IMG/VR virus record: IMGVR_UViG_3300035698_009105
Coordinates: 1-50,438 of that record
Reading direction: 5' to 3' (one strand)
Source of the DNA: a virus
Length of the DNA stretch: 50,438 bases
Shown here: in pieces, positions 1 to 12,123 of the stretch
Layout of the letters: every line of letters begins with the position of its first letter
Numbering within the stretch: position 1 is the stretch's first letter
Notes under the pieces: model-generated
Databases searched by the model: none
Told to the model about the DNA's origin: nothing
Seen by the model: only the letters and a program-made list of their open reading frames with translations
Made by a program: the position numbers and the translations under genes

Positions 1-79
1 AGCAATTGCATTGATGTCCCATCATGTCTACGTCACAATCATCAAATGCAGTTATTAAGCTTTTAACTTTATATTTCAT
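1..79 (-). CDS. Partial hypothetical protein, C-terminus off the left edge
   Basis: The first 26 codons of a minus-strand gene are visible; the rest lies outside the window. It starts at an ATG preceded by AAGGATT at good Shine-Dalgarno spacing and just 3 bases after the stop of the transglycosylase-like gene, so the two are probably co-transcribed. The visible residues (MKYKVKSLIT, then a D/C-rich stretch ending GHQCNC) are not recognised. Its position makes it a candidate for further 7-deazaguanine pathway genes, but nothing in the 26 residues shows that. Confidence 0.6.
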   Translation of the reverse strand, partial: MKYKVKSLITAFDDCDVDMMGHQCNC

Positions 80-82
80 TTT

Positions 83-1648
83 TTAATCCTTTATAATATC
101 TTCGTAATTAAAGTGGTCGGGGTCATTACCGAGTGCGTCATGGTCAACAATTCCTTTAGTCTCGTCAAAGAATTCGGAATCTAATTGCTTTTCCGCCGCT
201 AACTGGCCAAAGCTAATTTCATCTAAAAACGGCTTATATTGTTTAAGCATTTTGTATGGATTTGGGTTAGTTGGGTCTAATAAGTCCTTAACAAAACTGT
301 CAAAATATACAACACTATAAGGCACATATGGTGAAAATTCATTTGTGTTTTTGCTTTTCTTATCACCAGTCCAATCAGTATAATGAACGTTGGCGCGGAA
401 TTTTTCTAGATCGCAAAGTCTATTTGCTTCTTGTACCGCTGTAAGATGGTTGTAAACACTGTGCGCCATGTAATACATATAACTTTGTGTATCCCAACTT
501 GTGCTATCTGGCCCTTTAGCATTGCCGTTTTTATCTAAGTCGCCCTCTTCCATGCAACAAATATCGCCAGCAACTAATCGGTTCATAATTGGGCTACCAA
601 ACGGCATTGGTAAATCGCTACCTTTTAATTTTTGTGAATCTATTGCTCTATCCATAAAGTAACTAAACTTCTTAGGAGCGAAAAAATTATGTGAGTATGT
701 TTGGCCAAATGCAGTGTTTACAAATGGACTTGCAGCATCAAAACTTAGTGTAATAGTAGGACTGTCGTGTTCTCGCAAAACACGCTGGATACTGGTTAAG
801 TAACAAGCCCAGTTTAATTTACCAGTTCCCAAAAAGTGCATCCAACCTTTGCCTTCTAGCAATCCATCTCTGCGCAAGTCTAAGATACGCTTAAGTGCAA
901 TATACATAAAGCTTTTGTTAATACCAGCCATTGCATATCCTTCTAGTGTACGGTCTCTATCGCCATACTCTTCTGTTACAAACTTAGGGTCACTGTACTT
1001 TTTAACTGCCTCGTACCATTGATCCGAACTAGCTTCGTCATTGCCTGACAAAATATTCATAAAGTTTGTAGCACCTGGAGTTCTATTTTTCATAAAATAG
1101 TCCAAGTTGAGTAATGTAACATCTAGTGCTGCTTGGAAACTAGTTAAGCCAGTTCTTTGATTAAGGGGAGGAATACACGCCACACTAGGTACATCAAATG
1201 TCATGCTCCAGTCTGCCGTGTGTTCCAACCATTTTAATATACGCTCACAAATAGCTTCACGAGCAGGGTCTCCTGGATTGCCTGCGGTAGTCCAGTCCAT
1301 TTTTAATACACCAGTCGCAACTTGGAAACCACCACTATCACCTAAGATCATAGTTTTACTTCGATCTCGCTTTTGGACCATTGGTTCAGCATCATTAGTT
1401 TTGGTTACGTCCAATTGCGCGTGACCAGCACTGTAAAGTCCCCAAGGATAATGATAGTATCCATTATCGTCTAAAAAGTCTAGACCTTCATTTCCTTTAT
1501 CAAAGCCTCCAGGCACTCTAGCGTCTGCCTTATCTGCACCTACAATTTTTTCTAATTGCTTAGTGTAGAATGAACTAATGGCTGGTAAATATACTGCGTA
1601 GTCTTTTTGTGTAACGCCTAAGTCTACGGTATTTTGTTTTTGTGTCAT
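83..1648 (-). CDS. dpdA: tRNA-guanine transglycosylase-like protein, probably a DpdA-type DNA transglycosylase
   Basis: A 521-residue protein with hallmarks of the TGT fold. DSGGFQ sits near residue 104, where TGT has its substrate-binding aspartate. FDVPSV is near residue 150, and FDAASP near residue 305 lies where TGT and DpdA have the nucleophilic aspartate. Family knowledge: phage DpdA proteins exchange guanine in DNA for 7-deazaguanine precursors, protecting it from host nucleases; ordinary TGT acts on tRNA. I favour DpdA because this is a phage gene, longer than bacterial TGT (about 375 aa), and a QueD-like gene lies 0.4 kb upstream in the same transcription unit. The start is supported by AGGAAG. 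The enzyme family is clear; the substrate (DNA or tRNA) is inferred. Confidence 0.75.
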   Translation of the reverse strand: MTQKQNTVDLGVTQKDYAVYLPAISSFYTKQLEKIVGADKADARVPGGFDKGNEGLDFLDDNGYYHYPWGLYSAGHAQLDVTKTNDAEPMVQKRDRSKTMILGDSGGFQVATGVLKMDWTTAGNPGDPAREAICERILKWLEHTADWSMTFDVPSVACIPPLNQRTGLTSFQAALDVTLLNLDYFMKNRTPGATNFMNILSGNDEASSDQWYEAVKKYSDPKFVTEEYGDRDRTLEGYAMAGINKSFMYIALKRILDLRRDGLLEGKGWMHFLGTGKLNWACYLTSIQRVLREHDSPTITLSFDAASPFVNTAFGQTYSHNFFAPKKFSYFMDRAIDSQKLKGSDLPMPFGSPIMNRLVAGDICCMEEGDLDKNGNAKGPDSTSWDTQSYMYYMAHSVYNHLTAVQEANRLCDLEKFRANVHYTDWTGDKKSKNTNEFSPYVPYSVVYFDSFVKDLLDPTNPNPYKMLKQYKPFLDEISFGQLAAEKQLDSEFFDETKGIVDHDALGNDPDHFNYEDIIKD

Positions 1649-1670
1649 ATTGCTTCCTGGTGTATTTTTA

Positions 1671-1847
1671 TTATGTTGTTGCGTTCATTGCTGCAAAATC
1701 CCTAGCTCTTTTTTCGTTTTTACGAAGCCGTTTTACTTTAGCTAGTTCTAACGCCTTATTATCTGAATCAGACAATACATGTGCTTTAGGTTTAGGGGTA
1801 ATAGGATCAGGATTTACGACTGATGCATTAATGTCAAGATCGTTCAA
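1671..1847 (-). CDS. Small basic protein with a probable TTG start
   Basis: An open frame of 58 codons with no ATG. Its TTG overlaps the stop of the upstream small gene as TTGA, the same coupling geometry as the ATGA and GTGA overlaps elsewhere here, and GAAGAA lies 6 bases upstream. The C-terminus is rich in lysine and arginine (AKVKRLRKNEKRARDF). An alternative is a -1 frameshift extending the upstream gene, since the two frames are related by -1 and abut. Function unknown; a nucleic-acid-binding role is only suggested by charge. Confidence 0.4.
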   Translation of the reverse strand: MNDLDINASVVNPDPITPKPKAHVLSDSDNKALELAKVKRLRKNEKRARDFAAMNATT

Positions 1848-2023
1848 GAGCCATTCTTCTTGTCTTGAATTTCAACACGTCGCACTTTAGCTGCTTTTGT
1901 GATTTCCATTAATGCTTTACGGGCGCGAGCAGCAGCAGCTTTAACACCACCAACTTCAAACTTTTCGCTTTCTACTAAGTATTCTTCAAATAGTGCTTTC
2001 ATCTTAATATGTGTTTCTGTCAT
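1844..2023 (-). CDS. Small alanine/lysine-rich protein, histone-like composition
   Basis: A 59-residue protein beginning MTETHIKMKALFEEYL, with a strong AAAAAGGAAA Shine-Dalgarno. Its central part (GGVKAAAARARKAL followed by AAKVRRVEIQDKK) is helical, alanine-rich and basic. It resembles the short basic proteins of T4-like cyanophages often annotated as histone-like, judged by composition and length rather than alignment. It lies between the QueD-like and transglycosylase-like genes and is coupled to the next frame by a TTGA overlap. Confidence 0.65.
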   Translation of the reverse strand: MTETHIKMKALFEEYLVESEKFEVGGVKAAAARARKALMEITKAAKVRRVEIQDKKNGS

Positions 2024-2083
2024 GATTGTTTTTCCTTTTTATTATTAATCATTTACAACTTTAGTTGTTTTGTTAAACAACGA

Positions 2084-2470
2084 TCACTTAGCCATGTAAT
2101 ATTCTATTTCACAGCCGTTTTCGTTGTCTTCTGCCACGGATATTTTAACCCGTCTGTCTGGATATGTTGTTTTTATTTGATCAGCTAATTCATCTGATAA
2201 CATTTCACAGCTTTTGTAATCAAAGCTTAAGACATTATTTCCAGTTGAATTACTGTACAGTCCTTGGCACCATCTCTTAAACTGTATAAACTCAATGTCC
2301 CTGTCATTATGAAATACTTCTATCCATATTTTAAAATGGAACATGTGCCTATGCTCATATCCTAAAAAACTAACATCATCATTCTTTCCAGTTGCTAGTT
2401 TAGGATCTGTATCAGCACCAGGATACTTATGTGTGCCTTCTGCTTGGAATGTTACCCAAATGCTCCTCAC
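2084..2470 (-). CDS. QueD/6-pyruvoyl-tetrahydropterin-synthase-like T-fold protein
   Basis: A 128-residue protein starting at GTG, whose first bases overlap the stop of the upstream gene (GTGA). The order of motifs matches QueD: TFQAEGTHKYP near residue 7 (QueD F-x-A-x-H-x-x-P), HRHMF near residue 40 (QueD HGHSF, the HxH zinc ligands), DIEFIQFKRW (QueD IDF-x-x-LK), SCEMLSDELADQI (QueD T-S-E-x-L-A-x-x-I) and a terminal AEDNENGCEIEYY (QueD KET...). The catalytic cysteine before HGH and the DH-x-x-LN motif are not visible. QueD makes 6-carboxytetrahydropterin, the precursor of 7-deazaguanines, which fits the neighbouring transglycosylase gene. The altered active site could mean a different reaction. 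Confidence 0.55.
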   Translation of the reverse strand: MRSIWVTFQAEGTHKYPGADTDPKLATGKNDDVSFLGYEHRHMFHFKIWIEVFHNDRDIEFIQFKRWCQGLYSNSTGNNVLSFDYKSCEMLSDELADQIKTTYPDRRVKISVAEDNENGCEIEYYMAK

Positions 2471-2592
2471 GCTGCTACCTTTTTCTTTTTCTTAGTTAGT
2501 TCTCTTTTAACAAGTAGCATCATTTCCATAATGTCATCTATTTCGTCAGAGTCGTCAGTTGTATCAAGTTCTATTGCAATATTAATTTTCAT
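2467..2592 (-). CDS. Small acidic-then-basic protein, unknown
   Basis: A 41-residue frame starting MKINIAIELDTTDDSDEIDD and ending in a KKKKK tail. It overlaps the GTG start of the QueD-like gene by 4 bases (GTGA), which is the main evidence that it is real. No clear Shine-Dalgarno is visible. No family recognised. Confidence 0.45.
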   Translation of the reverse strand: MKINIAIELDTTDDSDEIDDIMEMMLLVKRELTKKKKKVAA

Positions 2593-2647
2593 TAGACTAG
2601 TACTCGTAAAATTCGTAAAATGTAAATTCTAAATCCATAGTATTTAC

Positions 2648-3394
2648 TTACTGTTTAGGTGGTATTAGGTAAGTGTATTCACCCATACCGCTATCAATCT
2701 TAATTTGCATCAATTTGTCATTAATGCTCATGACACAGTCGCCTGTATCGCTTAATTTTAATATTTTTAAAACAACATCTAGTGGCCATTGTCGCTCAGT
2801 ATTAAGTGAACCAGAAATATCACTGTTGATGTTAACTTCTGCACTATCACTTGAGCCATCACCGATTTGGAATGAAAGGGTGGTTCCGTCTGTTTTAGGA
2901 GTAAAGGTCATATCAGTTAATCCTAAAGTAGTATTAAACCAACCAAGGCTTTTAATATTATCTGCGGTAGGTACAAGGTTAACATTGAAGTCAGCACCTT
3001 TAAAGTCAATTGCTGCCATTTGTTGATCTAATACTGCACCAACAGCAAAACGGTAAGTTGCCTTAGTTCCTTCCTTAGCTTTAAACGTTGCGCTAAATGG
3101 GGTAGTAACTCCATTTCTATCTTGTGTAACAATTGACATGGTACCATCATCAGCTGAAAATCCTGGATATTTTAAACAGCCGTCCAATACGCCCATGCCC
3201 CTAAGGCCAATACTCGCATCAATAAATTCAGAAACTGGTTTGTGTGTTACTGCTTTTAGTATTACTGTTTTGTTAGGATCAACAGTTTCAATACCGGTGC
3301 CTTCTGTTGTACCTGTAATGCGCACCATTTCAAAAATACCCAGACCGTGGGTATGCTTTAGTACGTCTTTGAATGTGTCTTTAAGGTGGGTCAT
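2648..3394 (-). CDS. 45: DNA polymerase sliding clamp, T4 gp45-like
   Basis: A 248-residue protein (T4 gp45 is 228) with the clamp pattern: a C-terminus GMGEYTYLIPPKQ, internal repeats of beta-rich segments, and an N-terminus preceding TTEGTG. The trimeric clamp encircles DNA and tethers gp43; in T4-like phages it also activates late transcription. It is followed by an approximately 55-base gap and is preceded by a near-perfect sigma70 promoter and a GGAG ribosome site. The clamp-loader ATPase lies 25 kb away at 28.3-29.3 kb; a gp62 partner was not recognised. Confidence 0.85.
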   Translation of the reverse strand: MTHLKDTFKDVLKHTHGLGIFEMVRITGTTEGTGIETVDPNKTVILKAVTHKPVSEFIDASIGLRGMGVLDGCLKYPGFSADDGTMSIVTQDRNGVTTPFSATFKAKEGTKATYRFAVGAVLDQQMAAIDFKGADFNVNLVPTADNIKSLGWFNTTLGLTDMTFTPKTDGTTLSFQIGDGSSDSAEVNINSDISGSLNTERQWPLDVVLKILKLSDTGDCVMSINDKLMQIKIDSGMGEYTYLIPPKQ

Positions 3395-3427
3395 GTAGCG
3401 TTGTTCTCCATTATTATTTTTTTATTT

Positions 3428-3455
3428 ATTATACACTATATTTAGGTTTTGTCAA
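3428..3455 (-). promoter_or_regulatory. Sigma70-type promoter for the sliding clamp
   Basis: On the minus strand TTGACA (3450-3455) and TATAAT (3428-3433) are separated by 16 bases. Both hexamers are perfect. The clamp ATG is about 33 bases downstream with GGAG in between. Confidence 0.85.
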
Positions 3456-3456
3456 G

Positions 3457-4035
3457 TTATTCACGATAGTTTTCTGGGTTGGAAGGCATGTCAAATGCCA
3501 TATTTACCCAAACCGATAATTCGGCAATTTCAACATTTTGTGGCTGGTTAATGGACCATTTTACCATCTCTGCAAATTGACTAGGTGTTAACATTTTATC
3601 TACTGGTACGTTTGGTACACTGTTTATAATTCTATCTGTACTTACGTAACCAGGCGATAAGTTAATAATACGACATTTACGATTGTAATCATTTAAGGCT
3701 ATATTTACTTCATTGTGTAAATCTATCTTATGCTTGTTGTATTCACGATCATTATGATTGTACCTTGCTCGACTATTGATGTTAACAATTGTTTTGCTGC
3801 TGTCATCAAACCATTCGTCTAACAATAAACTAAAAAGAACACGTTGGGCTGATCTTTCGTAGGCATTGTTAATAAAAACATCACAGTTTTTAACGTGTTC
3901 GATAGTGCGTGTAGGTAACACATAAATGTCAAAGCCATTAGATCTACTTAGACCAGTAATGGTATTGTTATGTGACAAGGCATCAGCAATAGATTTACCA
4001 ATGCCTCGCGTGTGGCCAGTTATTGCTATATTCAT
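3457..4035 (-). CDS. Short-chain dehydrogenase/reductase (SDR)
   Basis: A 192-residue Rossmann protein. TGHTRGIG at residues 7-14 is the classical SDR dinucleotide-binding motif, followed by the structural NNAY at about 56, the catalytic YxxxK as YNKHK at about 108, and LSPGYVSTD at about 137. It is shorter than the usual 250 residues, lacking part of the C-terminal substrate lobe. It overlaps the stop of the polymerase C-terminal gene by ATGA, so it is translated from the same transcript. Substrate unknown; phage SDRs of this size have been proposed in nucleotide-sugar or cofactor metabolism. Confidence 0.8.
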   Translation of the reverse strand: MNIAITGHTRGIGKSIADALSHNNTITGLSRSNGFDIYVLPTRTIEHVKNCDVFINNAYERSAQRVLFSLLLDEWFDDSSKTIVNINSRARYNHNDREYNKHKIDLHNEVNIALNDYNRKCRIINLSPGYVSTDRIINSVPNVPVDKMLTPSQFAEMVKWSINQPQNVEIAELSVWVNMAFDMPSNPENYRE

Positions 4036-5051
4036 CCGAATGAAAAATACTCCTCCATTACTTCACTTTCGTTCATTTTAGATAAGTCAAATCCCATTTG
4101 TCCGATAACGTTTGTGATTTTCTTATCAAGTACTTTTTCTTCCATATCCTTGTCATCAAACGGTAACTCTTTAAACCACTCTGGCAAGTGTAACTCATCT
4201 GTTGGGTAAGCTATACTGTCATAGCCCATTGTGTTTTGCTTCAGCGAGCACACAACAACTTTCATACCATCAGCAATAGTCATGCTATAATTATCACCCA
4301 TAGCTTTTTTATAGTTGTTCCAGTTAACACTAGCCCTAACATGTCCGGGTACGGCATTGTTTTCCTTTTCCGACTTGTACAACTTGTGTAAGTCTCTGCC
4401 GTTAGGTAAGTTAATTCTTCTCTGTATCTTTGCTGTGTATGCAGTAAGATTGTTAACAGCCTTTGGCATTCCTCTTGCCCAAGAAGCTAAACCATTAAAC
4501 TCTTTCTTATATTCTACTATCTTTTTAATAACAGATGCTTCAGGTTCACCGTTAAGACAGTCTAATAATATTTCTTCTAGAAAGTTTTGAATAAACACTG
4601 GGGTGTCAGATCGCTTAAGGTCAATACCCATTGCTTTAAGCTTACCAGCAGTGCCATACCTTTTACCTTCATTATCCATTACCAAAATGGCATATCTTTT
4701 TTTAGAGTTAAATACTGCACTCTTGCCTACAACCTCACGCCCAGCTTTCATAACCGCGCCTGTTGTTAATGCTACGTTAAAGTCCTTCTTTAAAAATTCA
4801 GGAAACGTCTTGCTTACTTCGTCACTTACATGATCATATAACTTAACTGCACTGTCAGTATCAAGTTCGTGTCCTTCCTCTAAAATTGGAACTGCACTGA
4901 AGTAGACCGAGTCTGTGTTATGGACCGCCAATCCATTTGCAAAGAATGTTGGATCACCAAATCTCATTGATATATCGTAAACATAATCGTCTACTTCTCC
5001 TAAACATTCTACTTTTGCTATTCTTTCTCGTTGCGTAACCATGCTATGCAT
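4032..5051 (-). CDS. 43: DNA polymerase C-terminal half fused to the C-terminal part of a split intein
   Basis: 339 residues. The first 45 are an intein C-fragment: VYDISMRFGDPTFFANG followed by LAVHN (blocks F and G, with penultimate His and terminal Asn). Immediately after come TDSVYFSAV, completing the polymerase motif C YGDTDS begun in the upstream gene. The remainder is the family B palm/thumb, with KKRYA-type and KAMGIDLKRSDTP motifs. The +1 residue is Thr (codon at 4914-4916). The start ATG has GAGG upstream and lies inside the end of the endonuclease gene, overlapping it by 34 bases. Trans-splicing with the N-terminal half would restore an intact polymerase. Confidence 0.88.
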   Translation of the reverse strand: MHSMVTQRERIAKVECLGEVDDYVYDISMRFGDPTFFANGLAVHNTDSVYFSAVPILEEGHELDTDSAVKLYDHVSDEVSKTFPEFLKKDFNVALTTGAVMKAGREVVGKSAVFNSKKRYAILVMDNEGKRYGTAGKLKAMGIDLKRSDTPVFIQNFLEEILLDCLNGEPEASVIKKIVEYKKEFNGLASWARGMPKAVNNLTAYTAKIQRRINLPNGRDLHKLYKSEKENNAVPGHVRASVNWNNYKKAMGDNYSMTIADGMKVVVCSLKQNTMGYDSIAYPTDELHLPEWFKELPFDDKDMEEKVLDKKITNVIGQMGFDLSKMNESEVMEEYFSFG

Positions 5052-5974
5052 TGTTTTATTACCTCGTCTCTATTTTGTAAATAATCTGATTCCCAAATTA
5101 CTAGTGTTGGTATATTTCGTTCTTCTAATAGTAATTTTATTTTTTTATTATCTTTTTCCCATATATCTTTTGCTAAACTATCACAATGTGAGTGCATAAA
5201 CCCAGCATCATATTTATTTGGGTTGCAATGCCAATAATCTCCATTAATTTCTATTGCTTTGCTGTTATGCACAATATCGTAAAAATTTGGTTTATTGTTA
5301 CCGTATACACAATATTGCTTACTTAATATACTGTAATCTACTTCTTTGCCTAATACTGATTCTATTTCTACTACGATTGCCATTTCTAATTTAGATGTAT
5401 ATGCTAGCGACACGTTTCTTGCTTCTAATATTAATACTGCTTCTTCTTTAGAACAAGTGTGAACTCGTTGAACATTTTCTAACGTATGTGTTTTTAGTCC
5501 GCACACTGTATTATACTTAATAGTTCCGTTATCTTTTCCATACTTTTCTATAAAATATGATAATGTATTCGTAAATCCCTGCCTTTCACAATATACTTGC
5601 CATTTTATAGCGCCAGCAGTTTCACCGTGGCGAGCAATCATATTTTCTAAAGTCGCAGCTCTTGATTTATTATAATTAATAAAATCCTCTTCAGACCAGC
5701 CGTGCTTTTCCTTCTTGTATTCTAGAGTATTTGACTTCGCCTGCTTATTTTTATATGACACCCACCGACATTCGCCTTCTTTGTTGCCATATTTGTTAAT
5801 TAAACTAGCTCTTGTTACGGCGGCCCGCTTCCTTAATTCAAGATCAACTAACTCTGCTCCAGGATAAACATTGCGATATTCTCCACCATTAGAAAAACGA
5901 CCAGTGCATTTATACTTAAAATGTGTCCATTGTAATCTTGATGCTTTAAATCCGCACTCTAAACAAGTAGGCAT
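5018..5974 (-). CDS. Vsr-like homing endonuclease between the two polymerase halves
   Basis: 318 residues. The N-terminus has CLECG zinc-finger-like cysteines, followed by repeats resembling small DNA-binding modules (LINKYGNKEGECRW, MIARHGETAGAIKW, FIEKYGKDNGTIKY). The C-terminal 120 residues show the Vsr/EDxHD nuclease pattern: FYDIVHNSKAIEINGDYWH, then KDNKKIKLLLEERNIPTLVIWESDY. It has its own GGAG site and a GATAAATA octamer at the preceding stop codon. Free-standing Vsr-like homing genes inside split-intein genes were described as 'fractured genes' in environmental phage data (Dassa and co-workers). Likely role: cleaving uninterrupted polymerase genes at the insertion site to spread the split intein. 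Confidence 0.85.
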   Translation of the reverse strand: MPTCLECGFKASRLQWTHFKYKCTGRFSNGGEYRNVYPGAELVDLELRKRAAVTRASLINKYGNKEGECRWVSYKNKQAKSNTLEYKKEKHGWSEEDFINYNKSRAATLENMIARHGETAGAIKWQVYCERQGFTNTLSYFIEKYGKDNGTIKYNTVCGLKTHTLENVQRVHTCSKEEAVLILEARNVSLAYTSKLEMAIVVEIESVLGKEVDYSILSKQYCVYGNNKPNFYDIVHNSKAIEINGDYWHCNPNKYDAGFMHSHCDSLAKDIWEKDNKKIKLLLEERNIPTLVIWESDYLQNRDEVIKQCIAWLRNEKE

Positions 5975-6016
5975 ACATTATCTCCTTTATGCTGATACGT
6001 TGTATCGCTATACAAC

Positions 6017-8248
6017 TTATTTATCTTCTTCAGCAGCGGATATGAGCAAATCAGTATCTTCCAGTTCAGAGGGCTTAATATCTAATGTAAATCCATGTCG
6101 GTCAACAATTAAACTATGATCTTCAGTAACTGTAATGGTTTTTCCTGATTCTGTGGTAATTTTATATAATTTCTTTTTAGTTTTATGACGCATCACGTAA
6201 TCAATACTGCTATATTTTGCAATATCGTCTAACGACTGATAACTTAATACCCTAGCTTGTTCTCGCTCATCAGTCGGCACAGCATATTCTTTTCCTGAAT
6301 CGGATATTGTTTTTTCGGGAATACGCCCAAATAATGACGCTATAGTAATAGATGATCCGTCTTCTAAATCAATCATTGAATCGCCAGTAACGCTGTCACC
6401 ATAAATGATAGTTTTACCTTCGTGGTCGTATTCGCCAGTGAACATTCTGTTAGTTTCAGCACCCATATGTCGTGTAATGCGTCTACCAGTAAGTGTAGTT
6501 GACTGTCCTAGCCGTTTGTCATAAAAGCGACAACCGTTATTTAGTAACGCACCATACAAGCTATTCAAGTTAATCTTTTTAACTAGTTGCCGCTTATCCC
6601 AAAACTTTTCATCTTCAGAGTCTGGTACTGCTGCTTTCTTTTTACCTTGCAACTCAATACGTTCTTCAAACCAACGCCGTAGTAATCCAGGTATAACACC
6701 TTCTTGGTCAGTTTTAAATACAGTACCATTTGCACTAATATTCCAAGGCTGTCCGCTGTTAAATACTAAATTGTATATTTCAGCACCATTCGTTTCAACT
6801 ACAGTATTAGTCATTGCATCACGATCAACCATTTCTAGTTTTAACGGAATGTCAATGTTTTTCTCCATAACAAGCTCATATTCATTAGCACCAAATTTAC
6901 CTTGCCATGCATCCCCAACCGTCTTTGACTTCCTTGCAAACTTACCAGTTGTTTTGTCTAGCCAAGTACCTGCCATTTTGCTTGCGATTTCAGCATCGGT
7001 ATATTCTAAGCTAATTTGCGCAACCATGGTTTCATTTGACATATTCAAAGCCCGTAGTACGCTTGGATATAGACTAGTTAAGTCACTGCTGCCTACCCAT
7101 TTATGGAAACCCCGTTTAGGAGTAGCAACAAACGCGCCTGCTGCTTTTTCATGATCGGCTCTGTTTCTAATTCTGTCAGGAACTACCATACCTCGATTGT
7201 GCGCTTCATTTATAATTGCTTGTTCAGTGGTAGCAACTGCGCCCATTGTTACGGGCAAGAGTACGGTGTTTTCATGTGCAATCAAACTTGCCAATTCAAT
7301 AAATCTAAGCTTCTTATCGAGCTTATCTAGCAGCATAACGTCTTGTATGTTGTAGAGTAAGAACTTTTCAAAGTCATAGTTATATAGCCGATCTAAGCTT
7401 CCTTCATATGCTACTTTTCGTTCACCTACTTCCATTTCACCAATGTAATCTAATCGGTAAGTGTGTCGCTCTTCATAGTTGTATTTCTTATATAAGTGCA
7501 TGTAGTCAAGATGTACGCGACCAATTAAGTCATATGTTTTACGTTCGGCACCATGGCTTTCATATGTGCGTTGGGGAGGCAGCTGGCCAAATAAGCAAAG
7601 CTTTCTTGTTGCTTCTTTACCTAGTGTGCGTATAGTTCTATTAATAGTGTAAGGTATGTCATACCCTTCACTGTTCCAGCCACTAAGTATATCAGCATCT
7701 TCAACTATATCTAGGAAGGCAGCTATCATTTCTCCTTCTGTGCGAAACAAAACAACTTCAGGTATTTTGGCTGCAATTAATGATGCTTGCTCCCAAGTTA
7801 ATCTTTTAGGGGGCACAGCTAGACAAACCATTACGTCCATCCATTGTAAATAAACGCCAATTGATGTAATAGGCATAAATGCATCTTCAGGCGAACTGTA
7901 GCCACGTTGCGGGTCAAAATCGACCTCAATGTCAAAAAATGCATTATGTAGTATTGGCGGGGTGGCGCCTAAGAAGTGCTTGGCCAATGTTTTATTAACT
8001 GGCTTAACGTCACTTTCAAAAAGTTTATTATGCTTGTTAAATGCCACATTTTTCTTAAATTCTTTTCCTGACTTGCACCGCATTTCAGTAACCTTGTCAC
8101 CATGGATACTGCGTAGCTTTCCATTAGGATCGCCATAGTAGAAATTGTATTCGGGACGCATTTCACTAACAATACGCTTTCCGTTAACTCTTTCTACAAT
8201 ATGAACAACATCTTTATTTTTGTTGAAGTATGCATCAACGTAGGAGAT
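6017..8248 (-). CDS. 43: DNA polymerase N-terminal half fused to the N-terminal part of a split intein
   Basis: Family B polymerase: exonuclease motif FFDIEVDFD, motif A DLTSLYPS, motif B NLNSLYGALL, and the start of motif C at IIYGD. The extein ends at YGD. From Ser (codon 6392-6394) an intein N-fragment of 125 residues runs to the stop: block A SVTGDSMI and block B GKTITVTEDHSLIV (TxxH). The first ATG in frame is at 8161 and has no ribosome site. Homology-like sequence (SYVDAYF...HIVERVNGKR) continues upstream to 8248. There a perfect GGAGGT (8256-8261) sits 7 bases before an ATC codon and an in-frame stop is close behind, so I take ATC as the likely start. An undetected sequencing error ATG to ATC is the alternative. 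Confidence 0.85.
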   Translation of the reverse strand: MSYVDAYFNKNKDVVHIVERVNGKRIVSEMRPEYNFYYGDPNGKLRSIHGDKVTEMRCKSGKEFKKNVAFNKHNKLFESDVKPVNKTLAKHFLGATPPILHNAFFDIEVDFDPQRGYSSPEDAFMPITSIGVYLQWMDVMVCLAVPPKRLTWEQASLIAAKIPEVVLFRTEGEMIAAFLDIVEDADILSGWNSEGYDIPYTINRTIRTLGKEATRKLCLFGQLPPQRTYESHGAERKTYDLIGRVHLDYMHLYKKYNYEERHTYRLDYIGEMEVGERKVAYEGSLDRLYNYDFEKFLLYNIQDVMLLDKLDKKLRFIELASLIAHENTVLLPVTMGAVATTEQAIINEAHNRGMVVPDRIRNRADHEKAAGAFVATPKRGFHKWVGSSDLTSLYPSVLRALNMSNETMVAQISLEYTDAEIASKMAGTWLDKTTGKFARKSKTVGDAWQGKFGANEYELVMEKNIDIPLKLEMVDRDAMTNTVVETNGAEIYNLVFNSGQPWNISANGTVFKTDQEGVIPGLLRRWFEERIELQGKKKAAVPDSEDEKFWDKRQLVKKINLNSLYGALLNNGCRFYDKRLGQSTTLTGRRITRHMGAETNRMFTGEYDHEGKTIIYGDSVTGDSMIDLEDGSSITIASLFGRIPEKTISDSGKEYAVPTDEREQARVLSYQSLDDIAKYSSIDYVMRHKTKKKLYKITTESGKTITVTEDHSLIVDRHGFTLDIKPSELEDTDLLISAAEEDK
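6018..6025 (-). promoter_or_regulatory. Late-type promoter octamer GATAAATA before the intein endonuclease gene
   Basis: GATAAATA on the minus strand overlaps the stop codon of the polymerase N-terminal gene and lies 43 bases before the endonuclease ATG. Because it is part of codons (Asp-Lys-stop) it could be chance, but the same octamer precedes both other homing endonuclease genes. Confidence 0.5.
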
Positions 8249-8266
8249 GAGATTTACCTCCGTTTA

Positions 8267-8274
8267 GATAAATA
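8267..8274 (+). promoter_or_regulatory. Late-type promoter octamer for the plus-strand homing endonuclease
   Basis: GATAAATA on the plus strand, 35 bases before the ATG of the DUF723/Vsr-like endonuclease gene and within the 5' flank of the DNA polymerase gene. Confidence 0.6.
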
Positions 8275-8309
8275 CAGTTACGTAGACGCATATTACAGAG
8301 GTTTAAGAA

Positions 8310-9059
8310 ATGAGTAAAATACAATCCATCGCCCAAATTGAGCGATTTAAAAAAAGTGCAATAGACCGAAAAAACAAGTTTATTGAAAAAGCTAGTAAGA
8401 TTCATAATAATTTATATTCCTATGACCTTGTTGAGTATAAAGCAGCACAATCCAAGGTTAAAATTGTTTGCCCGATTCATGGTGTTTTTGAAAAAAGAGC
8501 ATGTGATCATATTGGACCGCATAATCAAGGGTGTCAATTCTGCGCACATAACCTGCCATTAACACTTAATGATTTCCAAAAACGTAGTAATGAAAAATAC
8601 AATAATAACTTTAAGATTTTATCATTCACTGGTATCAAAAATCCTGTAACTATTGAATGTAAAGAACATGCCTGTGTATTTACTATAAAAGTTGCCGAGA
8701 ACCACACTAAAAAAGATGGCTGTTGTCCTGTTTGCTTATCCCTTACTCGATTTAGTAATCTAAAACCAGGTAAAATAAGTAAAGCCGAAACTGCATGGTT
8801 AGACACTTTGTTGGTTCCGATGCGCCAAGCACCACTATATTTTGGAGACCGCACTATTCATGTGGATGGATTTGACCCATCCACTAATACAGTCTACGAA
8901 TATTACGGAAGCTATTGGCACGGTGACCCTTCTAAATATGCTCCCGATGAGTGGAACTCTAAAATTGGACTCACTCATGGGGAAATATACAAAGCAACTC
9001 TTCTGCGTGAAGAATTGATTAAATCAAAGTTTAATTTGATTGTAGAATGGTCTACGTAA
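8310..9059 (+). CDS. Homing-type endonuclease with DUF723-like zinc domains and Vsr-like nuclease
   Basis: 249 residues. Residues about 23-75 form a DUF723-like module (F...K-x-HNNLYSYDLVEY...KIVCPIHGVFEKR...GCQFC). A second degenerate copy follows (IECKEHACVF...GCCPVC). The C-terminus VDGFDPSTNTVYEYYGSYWHGDP with a final VEW resembles the Vsr-like/EDxHD nucleases. It is on the opposite strand to its neighbours, directly before the DNA polymerase gene, the usual placement for an intergenic homing gene. The octamer promoter lies 35 bases upstream; the start gives MSKIQSIAQIERF. It is not clearly a copy of the other Vsr-like gene at 5.0-6.0 kb. Confidence 0.75.
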   Translation: MSKIQSIAQIERFKKSAIDRKNKFIEKASKIHNNLYSYDLVEYKAAQSKVKIVCPIHGVFEKRACDHIGPHNQGCQFCAHNLPLTLNDFQKRSNEKYNNNFKILSFTGIKNPVTIECKEHACVFTIKVAENHTKKDGCCPVCLSLTRFSNLKPGKISKAETAWLDTLLVPMRQAPLYFGDRTIHVDGFDPSTNTVYEYYGSYWHGDPSKYAPDEWNSKIGLTHGEIYKATLLREELIKSKFNLIVEWST

Positions 9060-9064
9060 CTCAA

Positions 9065-9274
9065 TTATTTTTCATCCTCAATTGAAAGTATCTTACCGTC
9101 TTTTGCGACACTAATCCTAGAATTAGATCCAGCACCACTAACAATTACTGTTTTTCCAGTTGCTTTATGTATAGTAAGGGCAATAATGTCCTTATCCCCT
9201 AAGTGCTGGGAACTCGTAGCAATAATAATTTCAGTGTGTCCACTGTCAAGTACCATCGATTCAAATTTAATCAT
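9065..9274 (-). CDS. Small hypothetical protein, beta-rich
   Basis: 69 residues (MIKFESMVLDSG...), predicted mostly beta strand. It overlaps the upstream gene by ATGA, so it is translated together with it from the promoter at 9586-9613. It converges with the plus-strand endonuclease gene with only 5 bases between stops. No family recognised. Confidence 0.6.
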   Translation of the reverse strand: MIKFESMVLDSGHTEIIIATSSQHLGDKDIIALTIHKATGKTVIVSGAGSNSRISVAKDGKILSIEDEK

Positions 9275-9537
9275 AGTGTTTTCCCCACAGCATCGAGAAT
9301 GGTTTCCAAAGCATCAAAGTCATGTTGTGCATCTTGGAATTTTGCTTTATGTGCGATGGATATAGCTTTGTTGAGGATTGACGCTTTAATGTCTAATTCT
9401 TCTGCGTGTGCTTTAACTGTTTCACGCAAGCCTGTTTTAAGTGCGTCTACTTCGTATGCTGTTTGCACACCGTCATCAATTAGTCTTTTAAGTCTTGCAA
9501 CTTCCTCTGCGTTAAAGGAACGGTTAAACTCTGTCAT
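9271..9537 (-). CDS. Small helical protein, possibly T4 DsbA-like DNA-binding protein
   Basis: 88 residues, entirely helical: EEVARLKRLIDDGVQ, then LRETVKAHAEELDIKASILNKAISIAHK and a C-terminal FDALETILDAVG. Length (T4 DsbA is 89) and the pattern 'LK-x-L-I-x-x-G ... K-A-x-A-E-E-L-D-I' match the small protein of T4-like marine phages annotated DsbA, a dsDNA-binding helper of late transcription. This is pattern recognition only. Driven by a sigma70 promoter about 50 bases upstream. Confidence 0.55.
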   Translation of the reverse strand: MTEFNRSFNAEEVARLKRLIDDGVQTAYEVDALKTGLRETVKAHAEELDIKASILNKAISIAHKAKFQDAQHDFDALETILDAVGKTL

Positions 9538-11343: not shown

Positions 11344-12123
11344 ATGATATTTATCATCAACAAATATACTACTCTGTATTATTTGATTATTGAATCAGCA
11401 AAAGCAAACCAATTCAATGGTTACACAGAAGCACACCATATTATTCCTAAGTCGTTAAACGGGCCTAACACTAAGGCTAATCTAGTAAATCTTTCAGCAA
11501 GACAACATTGGCTTGTTCATAAACTGTTGACTAAGATGACAACTGGAAACAGCAAGCGTAAAATGATGTATGCGTTTGGCATGTTTCGCGTCAACAAAAC
11601 AGGAGACAGAGTTCTTACTAGTAAACAATATACTGAATCTAGAGAAGCTTTCATTGAAGCACATAGTAACAGAATAGTGTCTGGCATCACAAGAGAACGA
11701 CTTAGAAAAGCAAATACTAACCAACCAAAAGATCACACTTGTGCTCATTGTAATAATGATTTTACTAAAGGGAAATTTAATCAGTTTCATGGCGGTAAAT
11801 GCAAGATGAATCCAAATGTTGATCTTGTTATGTTAGAAGAACGCAGATTATCTAGAAAAAAATCTGACGATGTTAAGGAAAGAATGAGTCTGCGACATCA
11901 AGGAACGTGTAATCCATTTTATGGTAGAACGCACACTGAAGAAACTAAGGCAAATATGAAGGGCCGAACTGCACATAATAAAGGGAAGCCCATGTCTAAG
12001 AATCAACGGGACCAACTGTCAGCAAAAAGAAAGGGCCGTAAATGGTATTACGACCCTGTTACTTTAAAATCTAAACAATCGTACACCAAGCCTAAAGACT
12101 GGGTACCTGGAAGAAAACTTTAA
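11344..12123 (+). CDS. HNH homing endonuclease with NUMOD3-type DNA-binding motifs
   Basis: 259 residues. EAHHIIPKSLNGPN at about residue 30 followed by NLVNLSARQHWLVHKLL is the HNH (AHH-type) active site. CAHCNNDFTKGKF...GGKC at about 138 is a zinc-finger-like module. NPFYGRTHTEETKANMKG and HNKGKPMSKNQRDQLSAKRKG at 195-235 are NUMOD3-like helices that contact DNA in homing enzymes such as I-TevI relatives. The start has GGAG 11 bases upstream. It is antisense to all neighbours and ends one base before the stop of the monooxygenase-like gene. Confidence 0.85.
   Translation: MIFIINKYTTLYYLIIESAKANQFNGYTEAHHIIPKSLNGPNTKANLVNLSARQHWLVHKLLTKMTTGNSKRKMMYAFGMFRVNKTGDRVLTSKQYTESREAFIEAHSNRIVSGITRERLRKANTNQPKDHTCAHCNNDFTKGKFNQFHGGKCKMNPNVDLVMLEERRLSRKKSDDVKERMSLRHQGTCNPFYGRTHTEETKANMKGRTAHNKGKPMSKNQRDQLSAKRKGRKWYYDPVTLKSKQSYTKPKDWVPGRKL

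What the first reader, a model, noticed from the sequence alone, without database searches (positions are those of the whole stretch)
4032..8248. DNA polymerase split at its catalytic motif by a split intein, with a Vsr-like homing gene between the halves
The upstream gene ends in an intein N-fragment beginning with Ser directly after YGD. The downstream gene starts with a 45-residue intein C-fragment ending His-Asn and is followed by TDSVYF. Together they restore YGDTDS, the metal-binding motif C. A homing endonuclease with a Vsr-like domain fills the gap. The gene organisation resembles the 'fractured gene' arrangement described in marine phage data (Dassa and co-workers). The active enzyme would exist only after protein trans-splicing at the most conserved site of the polymerase. 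The intein may be a useful natural split intein with Thr at +1.
Basis: partly seen in the sequence, partly recalled or inferred. Interest (0 to 1): 0.9.

Follow-up and report, generated by a model that had tools for sequence, protein, structure and literature searches.

The report
Phage DNA polymerase with split intein
A bacterial virus carries its DNA polymerase gene in two pieces that protein trans-splicing should rejoin at the enzyme's catalytic motif, with a selfish DNA-cutting gene between them; this is a well-formed new example of an arrangement already known from other phages, and relatives show it jumping between viruses.

Summary
On the minus strand the window encodes a family-B polymerase N-half ending YGD plus a 125-aa intein-N, then a 318-aa endonuclease, then a 45-aa intein-C followed by TDSVYF and the polymerase C-half. 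Joined exteins (912 aa) align without a gap to 38 full-length uninterrupted phage polymerases, so it is no chimera. The intein has Ser1, Thr+1, the NX and N3 histidines and a terminal His-Asn; its nearest solved structure is 9hth, the trans-splicing Aes123 PolB1 intein. The endonuclease C-domain folds like Vsr and I-Bth0305I. Over 50 distinct viral cassettes share the order. Mobility is visible: Klebsiella phages KP13-7 (occupied) and RaK2 (empty) are 99% identical up to the insertion point, and in two other pairs the cassette is about 100% identical between polymerases only about 80% identical, with edges 20-45 nt from the splice sites. Relatives show endonuclease loss and one fused (cis) form. 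The kind is already known from Aeromonas, Campylobacter, Tenacibaculum and Pseudomonas phages. New details: the YGD|TDS (Thr+1) site, a late-promoter-like GATAAATA at the intein-N stop, and a relative with two inteins separated by only Thr-Asp. Splicing and cleavage were not tested here.

The parts
6395..8248 (-). N-extein: family-B DNA polymerase residues 1-618 (exonuclease and first part of polymerase domain), ending YGD
   Evidence: Pfam DNA_pol_B_exo1 and DNA_pol_B; phrog_262 E 8.8e-133; starts at an ATC aligned with relatives' ATG/TTG
6017..6394 (-). Intein-N fragment, 125 aa plus stop: Ser1, NX motif Arg-His (VMRHKT), N3 motif TEDH
   Evidence: TIGR01445 48.8 bits over cut-off 24.5; PDB 9hth E 5.6e-17 for IntN+IntC
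6018..6025 (-). Late-promoter-like GATAAATA overlapping the intein-N stop codon, 51 nt upstream of the endonuclease start
   Evidence: ATAAATA upstream of the endonuclease in 30 of 38 loci, shuffles mean 2.1, max 7
5999..6016 (-). Hairpin GTTGTAT-AGCG-ATACAAC upstream of the endonuclease RBS (does not cover the RBS); function inferred
   Evidence: fold; similar hairpin position in L101, L103, L130
5982..5987 (-). Shine-Dalgarno AAGGAG of the endonuclease gene
   Evidence: sequence
5018..5974 (-). Free-standing homing endonuclease, 318 aa: N-terminal CxxC...H...C likely zinc finger, helical middle, C-terminal Vsr-like nuclease domain (191-317)
   Evidence: phrog_22677 E 6e-56; model pLDDT 91; 1cw0 Z 11.2, 3r3p Z 10.2; invariant E197, D233, E242, H249 in 42 sequences
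4917..5051 (-). Intein-C fragment, 45 aa: C2 motif VYDIS, FFANGLAVHN
   Evidence: TIGR01443 16.5 bits over cut-off 15.6
4032..4916 (-). C-extein: 294 aa of polymerase beginning Thr+1 TDSVYF, plus stop
   Evidence: phrog_262 positions 578-849, E 2e-45

Best explanation
This is a family-B phage DNA polymerase (T4 gp43-like) whose gene has been invaded at the codon boundary YGD|TDS of catalytic motif C by a homing cassette: a naturally split, cysteine-independent class-1 intein with a free-standing Vsr-fold homing endonuclease between the halves. The two half-proteins are made separately. IntN and IntC associate, Ser1 and Thr+1 carry the ester steps, Asn cyclisation releases the intein, and an uninterrupted 912-aa polymerase results. 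The endonuclease probably cuts intein-less copies near the insertion site, so that the cassette is copied in by repair. It is probably expressed from its own late promoter so that it does not disturb early polymerase synthesis. Shown: anatomy, conserved catalytic residues, empty-site relatives, exact insertion, recent horizontal transfer of cassettes in relatives. Inferred: splicing, cleavage and late expression in this phage.
For: Anatomy and profiles. Intein matches 9hth, taken to be the Aes123 PolB1 intein that splices in trans (PMC11923092); NX Arg-His specific to Ser1 inteins present (PMC10189870). Endonuclease fold matches Vsr and the I-Bth0305I catalytic domain. More than 50 distinct viral cassettes, in nearly all of which Ser1 and HN|T or HN|S junctions are kept. 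38 full-length relatives uninterrupted with exteins abutting exactly (619|1), none with intein or endonuclease. KP13-7 versus RaK2: 99.4% and 99.3% identical flanks, insertion exactly at YGD|TDS. L067/L071 and L014/L018: cassette about 100% identical, polymerase about 80%, edges 21-44 nt outside the splice junctions. Intein tree separates the two insertion sites with 1 change while the polymerase tree needs 7. Low dN/dS in intein halves and endonuclease where measurable.
Against: No splicing or cleavage was measured. The window phage has no close occupied relative: intein about 58% and endonuclease 57% identical at best. Its polymerase group is otherwise intein-free, so recent homing is shown in relatives, not in this phage. 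The polymerase start codon is an unusual ATC, and a sequencing error or weak expression cannot be excluded.
Confidence: 0.93

Rival explanations
1. The two halves do not splice but assemble non-covalently into an active polymerase, as proposed for other split phage enzymes (gp43A/43B of Aeromonas phages, NrdA of Aeh1).
For: Split phage enzymes that work without splicing exist (PMC2988022, read).
Against: The known gp43A/43B break lies elsewhere. Here 170 intein residues would lie between the two motif-C aspartates. Splicing residues stay conserved across >50 cassettes, also where the endonuclease is gone (L011, L012, L050, L052).
Confidence: 0.03
2. The element is decaying: the intein is inactive and the phage replicates with another polymerase.
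For: No expression data; unusual ATC start at 8248.
Against: All splice motifs intact, all three ORFs open, polymerase motifs kept, low dN/dS in relatives. The window is only a 50-kb fragment, so a second polymerase was not ruled out.
Confidence: 0.03
3. Assembly artefact joining two genomes.
For: The window is a metagenomic virus record.
Against: Both halves are closest to the same intein-free polymerase group and abut exactly; gene order around them is conserved; the same order recurs in dozens of independent contigs and in isolates.
Confidence: 0.01

Closest known systems
Aes123/Aes508/Aes516/AS-gz PolB1 split intein of Aeromonas phages (JN377894, JN377905, MF479730; structure 9hth)
   Same: Split family-B polymerase at motif C, cysteine-less class-1 intein with Ser1, Vsr-type endonuclease between halves (absent in Aes516), trans-splicing shown experimentally
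   Different: Insertion is two codons later (xDTD|S, Ser+1); intein about 32% identical; the polymerase also carries a second split and a group I intron
Klebsiella phage KP13-7 (OP617745, genes annotated only as hypothetical)
   Same: Same site YGD|TDS, Thr+1, same order IntN-endonuclease-IntC; empty counterpart RaK2
   Different: Intein and endonuclease 34-51% identical to the window's; the alignment covers the endonuclease only from residue 45
Pseudomonas phages MIJ3 / PA5oct / Cassandra
   Same: Split PolB intein at motif C in a related large phage; polymerase C-half 47% identical
   Different: Site YGDTD|S; endonuclease of another (HNH) type
I-Bth0305I and the EDxHD (Vsr-like) homing endonucleases of fractured genes (Dassa et al. 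2009, not held in the library)
   Same: Vsr-like catalytic domain, free-standing gene inside a split-intein gene
   Different: Only about 20% identity over the domain; different N-terminal part with a likely zinc finger
Nanoarchaeum equitans split Pol intein (from general knowledge)
   Same: Natural split intein at PolB motif C with Ser1 and Thr+1
   Different: Archaeal chromosome, halves far apart, no endonuclease

Membership tests
Fractured-gene arrangement (split intein plus free-standing homing endonuclease) | Host gene broken into two ORFs that end and begin with matching intein halves | tested here: met
Fractured-gene arrangement (split intein plus free-standing homing endonuclease) | Homing endonuclease ORF lying between the halves | tested here: met
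   fold
Fractured-gene arrangement (split intein plus free-standing homing endonuclease) | Uninterrupted homologues of the host gene exist, with exact joining | tested here: met
Fractured-gene arrangement (split intein plus free-standing homing endonuclease) | Trans-splicing and cleavage of the intein-less gene | not testable with these tools
   needs bench work
Cysteine-independent (Ser1, Ser/Thr+1) class-1 split inteins of PolB | Ser at position 1 and Ser or Thr at +1 | tested here: met
   SVTGDS... and HN|TDS
Cysteine-independent (Ser1, Ser/Thr+1) class-1 split inteins of PolB | NX-motif histidine preceded by Arg/Lys, plus N3 histidine | tested here: met
   VMRHKT and TVTEDHS in IntN; definition from PMC10189870
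Cysteine-independent (Ser1, Ser/Thr+1) class-1 split inteins of PolB | No cysteine at a catalytic junction position (a non-conserved cysteine elsewhere is allowed, as in the published members) | tested here: met
   only cysteine is in VECLGEV of IntC; CP21, LCGC14 and GOM-OPS-1 each carry one such cysteine (PMC12707363)
PolB1 allele of Aes123 | Insertion after xDTD with Ser+1 | tested here: not met
   the window is at YGD|TDS; intein tree separates the two sites
EDxHD (Vsr-like) homing endonucleases | Vsr-like catalytic fold | tested here: met
   Z 11.2 to Vsr 1cw0 and 10.2 to I-Bth0305I 3r3p
EDxHD (Vsr-like) homing endonucleases | Catalytic E, D, H, D residues | tested here: inconclusive
   E197, D233, E242, H249 invariant and D246 over 90%, but not placed on the active site of 3r3p
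T4-type hairpin- and late-promoter-regulated homing endonuclease genes | Late-promoter-like sequence directly upstream | tested here: met
   GATAAATA at 6025-6018; 30/38 loci against 2.1 by shuffling; promoter activity not tested
T4-type hairpin- and late-promoter-regulated homing endonuclease genes | Hairpin that hides the ribosome-binding site in early transcripts | tested here: inconclusive
   relatives 76.6% paired against at most 52% when slid, covariation weak; window hairpin lies upstream of the RBS, z -1.3

The most novel reading that the evidence does not exclude
Beyond being a selfish passenger, trans-splicing at motif C acts as a timing or dosage switch. No active polymerase exists until both halves accumulate and splice, while the late promoter built into the IntN stop codon separates homing from replication.
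Probability: 0.07. Interest if true: 0.7.

Novelty: new member of a known kind. Interest (0 to 1): 0.38.

Why it matters
Cysteine-less split inteins are called rare and are sought as protein-labelling tools; this lineage offers dozens of naturally split Ser1/Thr+1 pairs at a site little studied in phages. The relatives catch a homing cycle in the act (empty, occupied, endonuclease eroded or lost, halves fused). They also provide near-isogenic isolates, KP13-7 and RaK2, in which homing of a split-intein cassette could be tested directly.

Tried and rejected
Looking for splicing-independent function: no feature supports it. Sequence search of the endonuclease against Pfam and NCBIfam found nothing; the single-sequence PDB search gave only an unrelated protein at E 0.25, and the profile reached Vsr only at E 0.08, so the fold comparison was needed. 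Plain Foldseek gave no hit at E<=0.001; VIA-align 2 on its candidates gave the Vsr match. The hairpin that hides the RBS in relatives was tested for the window and is weak there, so I do not claim it. Paper search for 'split intein' with 'gp43' found nothing, and the original fractured-gene paper (Dassa 2009) is not in the library, so statements about its content rest on citing papers and general knowledge.
Full report
WHAT IS THERE. The window is a whole 50,438-base virus record. On the minus strand lie three consecutive ORFs: 8248-6017, 5974-5018 and 5051-4032. The first is a family-B DNA polymerase (exonuclease domain and start of the polymerase domain; Pfam and phrog_262 E 8.8e-133) that ends ...KTIIYGD followed by 125 residues starting SVTGDSMI. 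These score 48.8 bits on TIGR01445, intein N-terminal region. The third starts with 45 residues ending FFANGLAVHN (TIGR01443 over its cut-off) followed by TDSVYF and the rest of the polymerase (phrog_262 positions 578-849).

IT IS NOT A CHIMERA. The joined exteins were compared with 75 further viral loci. In 38 full-length relatives the polymerase is one ORF. The two halves match it at 63-72% and 58-66% identity, abut with distance 0 (N-half residue 619 to C-half residue 1 in the query numbering used there), and no intein or endonuclease is found. The gene upstream of the polymerase (homologue of 9271-9537) and the sliding-clamp-like gene downstream (2648-3394) are at the same place in most of them. 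The window's polymerase group is therefore normally uninterrupted, and the cassette is an insertion.

THE INTEIN. Nearest solved structure is 9hth (E 5.6e-17 for IntN+IntC), which I take to be the Aes123 PolB1 split intein: PMC11923092 reports a 1.38 A crystal structure and splicing data for that intein, and the 9hth chain closely resembles the Aes508 homologue read. Three further PolB split inteins, CP21 PolB1, LCGC14 PolB2 and GOM-OPS-1 PolB2, were tested in PMC12707363 and all use Ser+1. The window's intein has Ser1, Thr+1, the Arg-His of motif NX that marks cysteine-independent inteins (PMC10189870), the N3 TxxH and the terminal His-Asn. Its one cysteine (VECLGEV) is not at a junction. The oxyester class-1 pathway is thus the expected mechanism. 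Splicing itself was not tested here.

THE ENDONUCLEASE. The 318-aa ORF has no Pfam or NCBIfam match but is PHROG 22677. A model built on 42 relatives (pLDDT 91) matches Vsr 1cw0 (Z 11.2, 114 residues, 2.8 A) and the catalytic domain of the homing endonuclease I-Bth0305I 3r3p (Z 10.2, 96 residues, 2.8 A) over residues 191-318. E197, D233, E242 and H249 are invariant; C4, C7, H18 and C23 are nearly invariant and look like a zinc finger. A distant relative of the same endonuclease also sits in what looks like a split terminase gene (L128, L131).

RELATIVES AND TWO INSERTION SITES. At least 53 distinct cassettes with a full endonuclease were found, 35 at YGD|TDS (Thr+1) and 18 at YGDTD|S or its equivalent (Ser+1). 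On the intein tree the sites separate with one change (support for that branch is low, 50). The polymerase tree needs 7 changes, at least 5 forced by well supported branches. So related polymerases carry different inteins. For example, L012 (Thr site, no endonuclease) and L103 (Ser site, endonuclease) are mostly 85-90% identical in flanking DNA.

MOBILITY. Three observations support homing. (1) Klebsiella phages KP13-7 and RaK2: bases 13-4018 of the KP13-7 locus match RaK2 at 99.4% and 5778-8351 at 99.3%, contiguous in RaK2, so the cassette sits precisely at YGD|TDS in one and is absent in the other. (2) L067 and L071, same endonuclease group as the window (SH-aLRT 99): cassette about 100% identical, polymerase about 80%; identity runs from 24 nt before the upstream junction to 44 nt after the downstream one and then drops. 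Several contigs carry each version. (3) L014 and L018 show the same with edges about 21 and 28 nt away. Such short co-conversion tracts are what cutting near the insertion site would leave. The converse is also present: cassettes without endonuclease (L011, L012, L050, L052), with a remnant (L022, L038, L045, L053), and one with the two intein halves in one ORF (L023).

REGULATION. Between IntN and the endonuclease most relatives carry ATAAATA 31-51 nt before the start codon: 30 of 38 loci, against a shuffled mean of 2.1 and maximum 7. This resembles the T4 late promoter TATAAATA (general knowledge). In the window GATAAATA overlaps the IntN stop codon; [N]ATAAATA stands before many other minus-strand genes of the window. 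In relatives a hairpin with GGAG in its loop and the start codon in its stem is suggested (76.6% paired, at most 52% when slid; covariation not clearly beyond the shuffles). This is the design known for I-TevI, SegB and MobE. The window instead has a hairpin upstream of a free RBS, like seg43(25) of Aeromonas phage 25 (PMC2988022). I treat the promoter as likely and the hairpin effect as unproven.

KNOWN OR NEW. The arrangement is known: Aeromonas phages are annotated 'intein-containing split DNA polymerase precursor' with a 'VSR' endonuclease, Tenacibaculum phage PTm1 likewise, MIJ3 was described in 2019 (PMC6892783), and homologues have been shown to splice. The window is a new, divergent member at the Thr+1 site. 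The surprising item is outside the window: L101 has a split intein at YGD|TD directly followed by a contiguous mini-intein at TD|S, leaving a two-residue extein.

Noticed in passing
L101 (IMGVR_UViG_3300009194_000009) 5420-5941 and 6863-8380: Two inteins back to back in polymerase motif C: YGD|split intein (with Vsr-like endonuclease)|TD|contiguous mini-intein|SSYF. The middle extein is the dipeptide Thr-Asp, so both splicing reactions share it.
   Followed up: partly
window 8246-8248 (-): Polymerase N-half appears to start at ATC (SD GGAGG upstream) where relatives have ATG or TTG; L185 also has ATC.
   Followed up: partly
window 8310-9059 (+): Second endonuclease-like gene (DUF723 repeats, Vsr-like EYYGSYWHGDPSKY) inserted divergently just upstream of the polymerase, with its own GATAAATA at 8267; the relatives checked showed no match to it.
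   Followed up: partly
window 11344-12123 (+): HNH/NUMOD3 homing endonuclease gene, a third homing-type gene within 7 kb.
   Followed up: no
L023 5308-5787: Intein-N and intein-C fused into one ORF without endonuclease, about 80% (N side) and 74% (C side) identical in DNA to the split form L017: a natural split-to-cis (or cis-to-split) pair.
   Followed up: partly
L006 (Klebsiella phage KP13-7) 1865-6628: Split polymerase, intein and endonuclease are annotated only as hypothetical proteins; RaK2 is the empty-site sister at 99% identity.
   Followed up: yes
L128 2633-5833 and L131 783-4178: A relative of the endonuclease lies in what looks like a split terminase gene (break after SSRQSGK), with a short intein-N.
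   Followed up: no
window minus strand, e.g. 13888, 13492, 11054, 10620, 9573, 3430: [G/A]ATAAATA precedes many minus-strand genes and is probably this phage's late promoter.
   Followed up: partly
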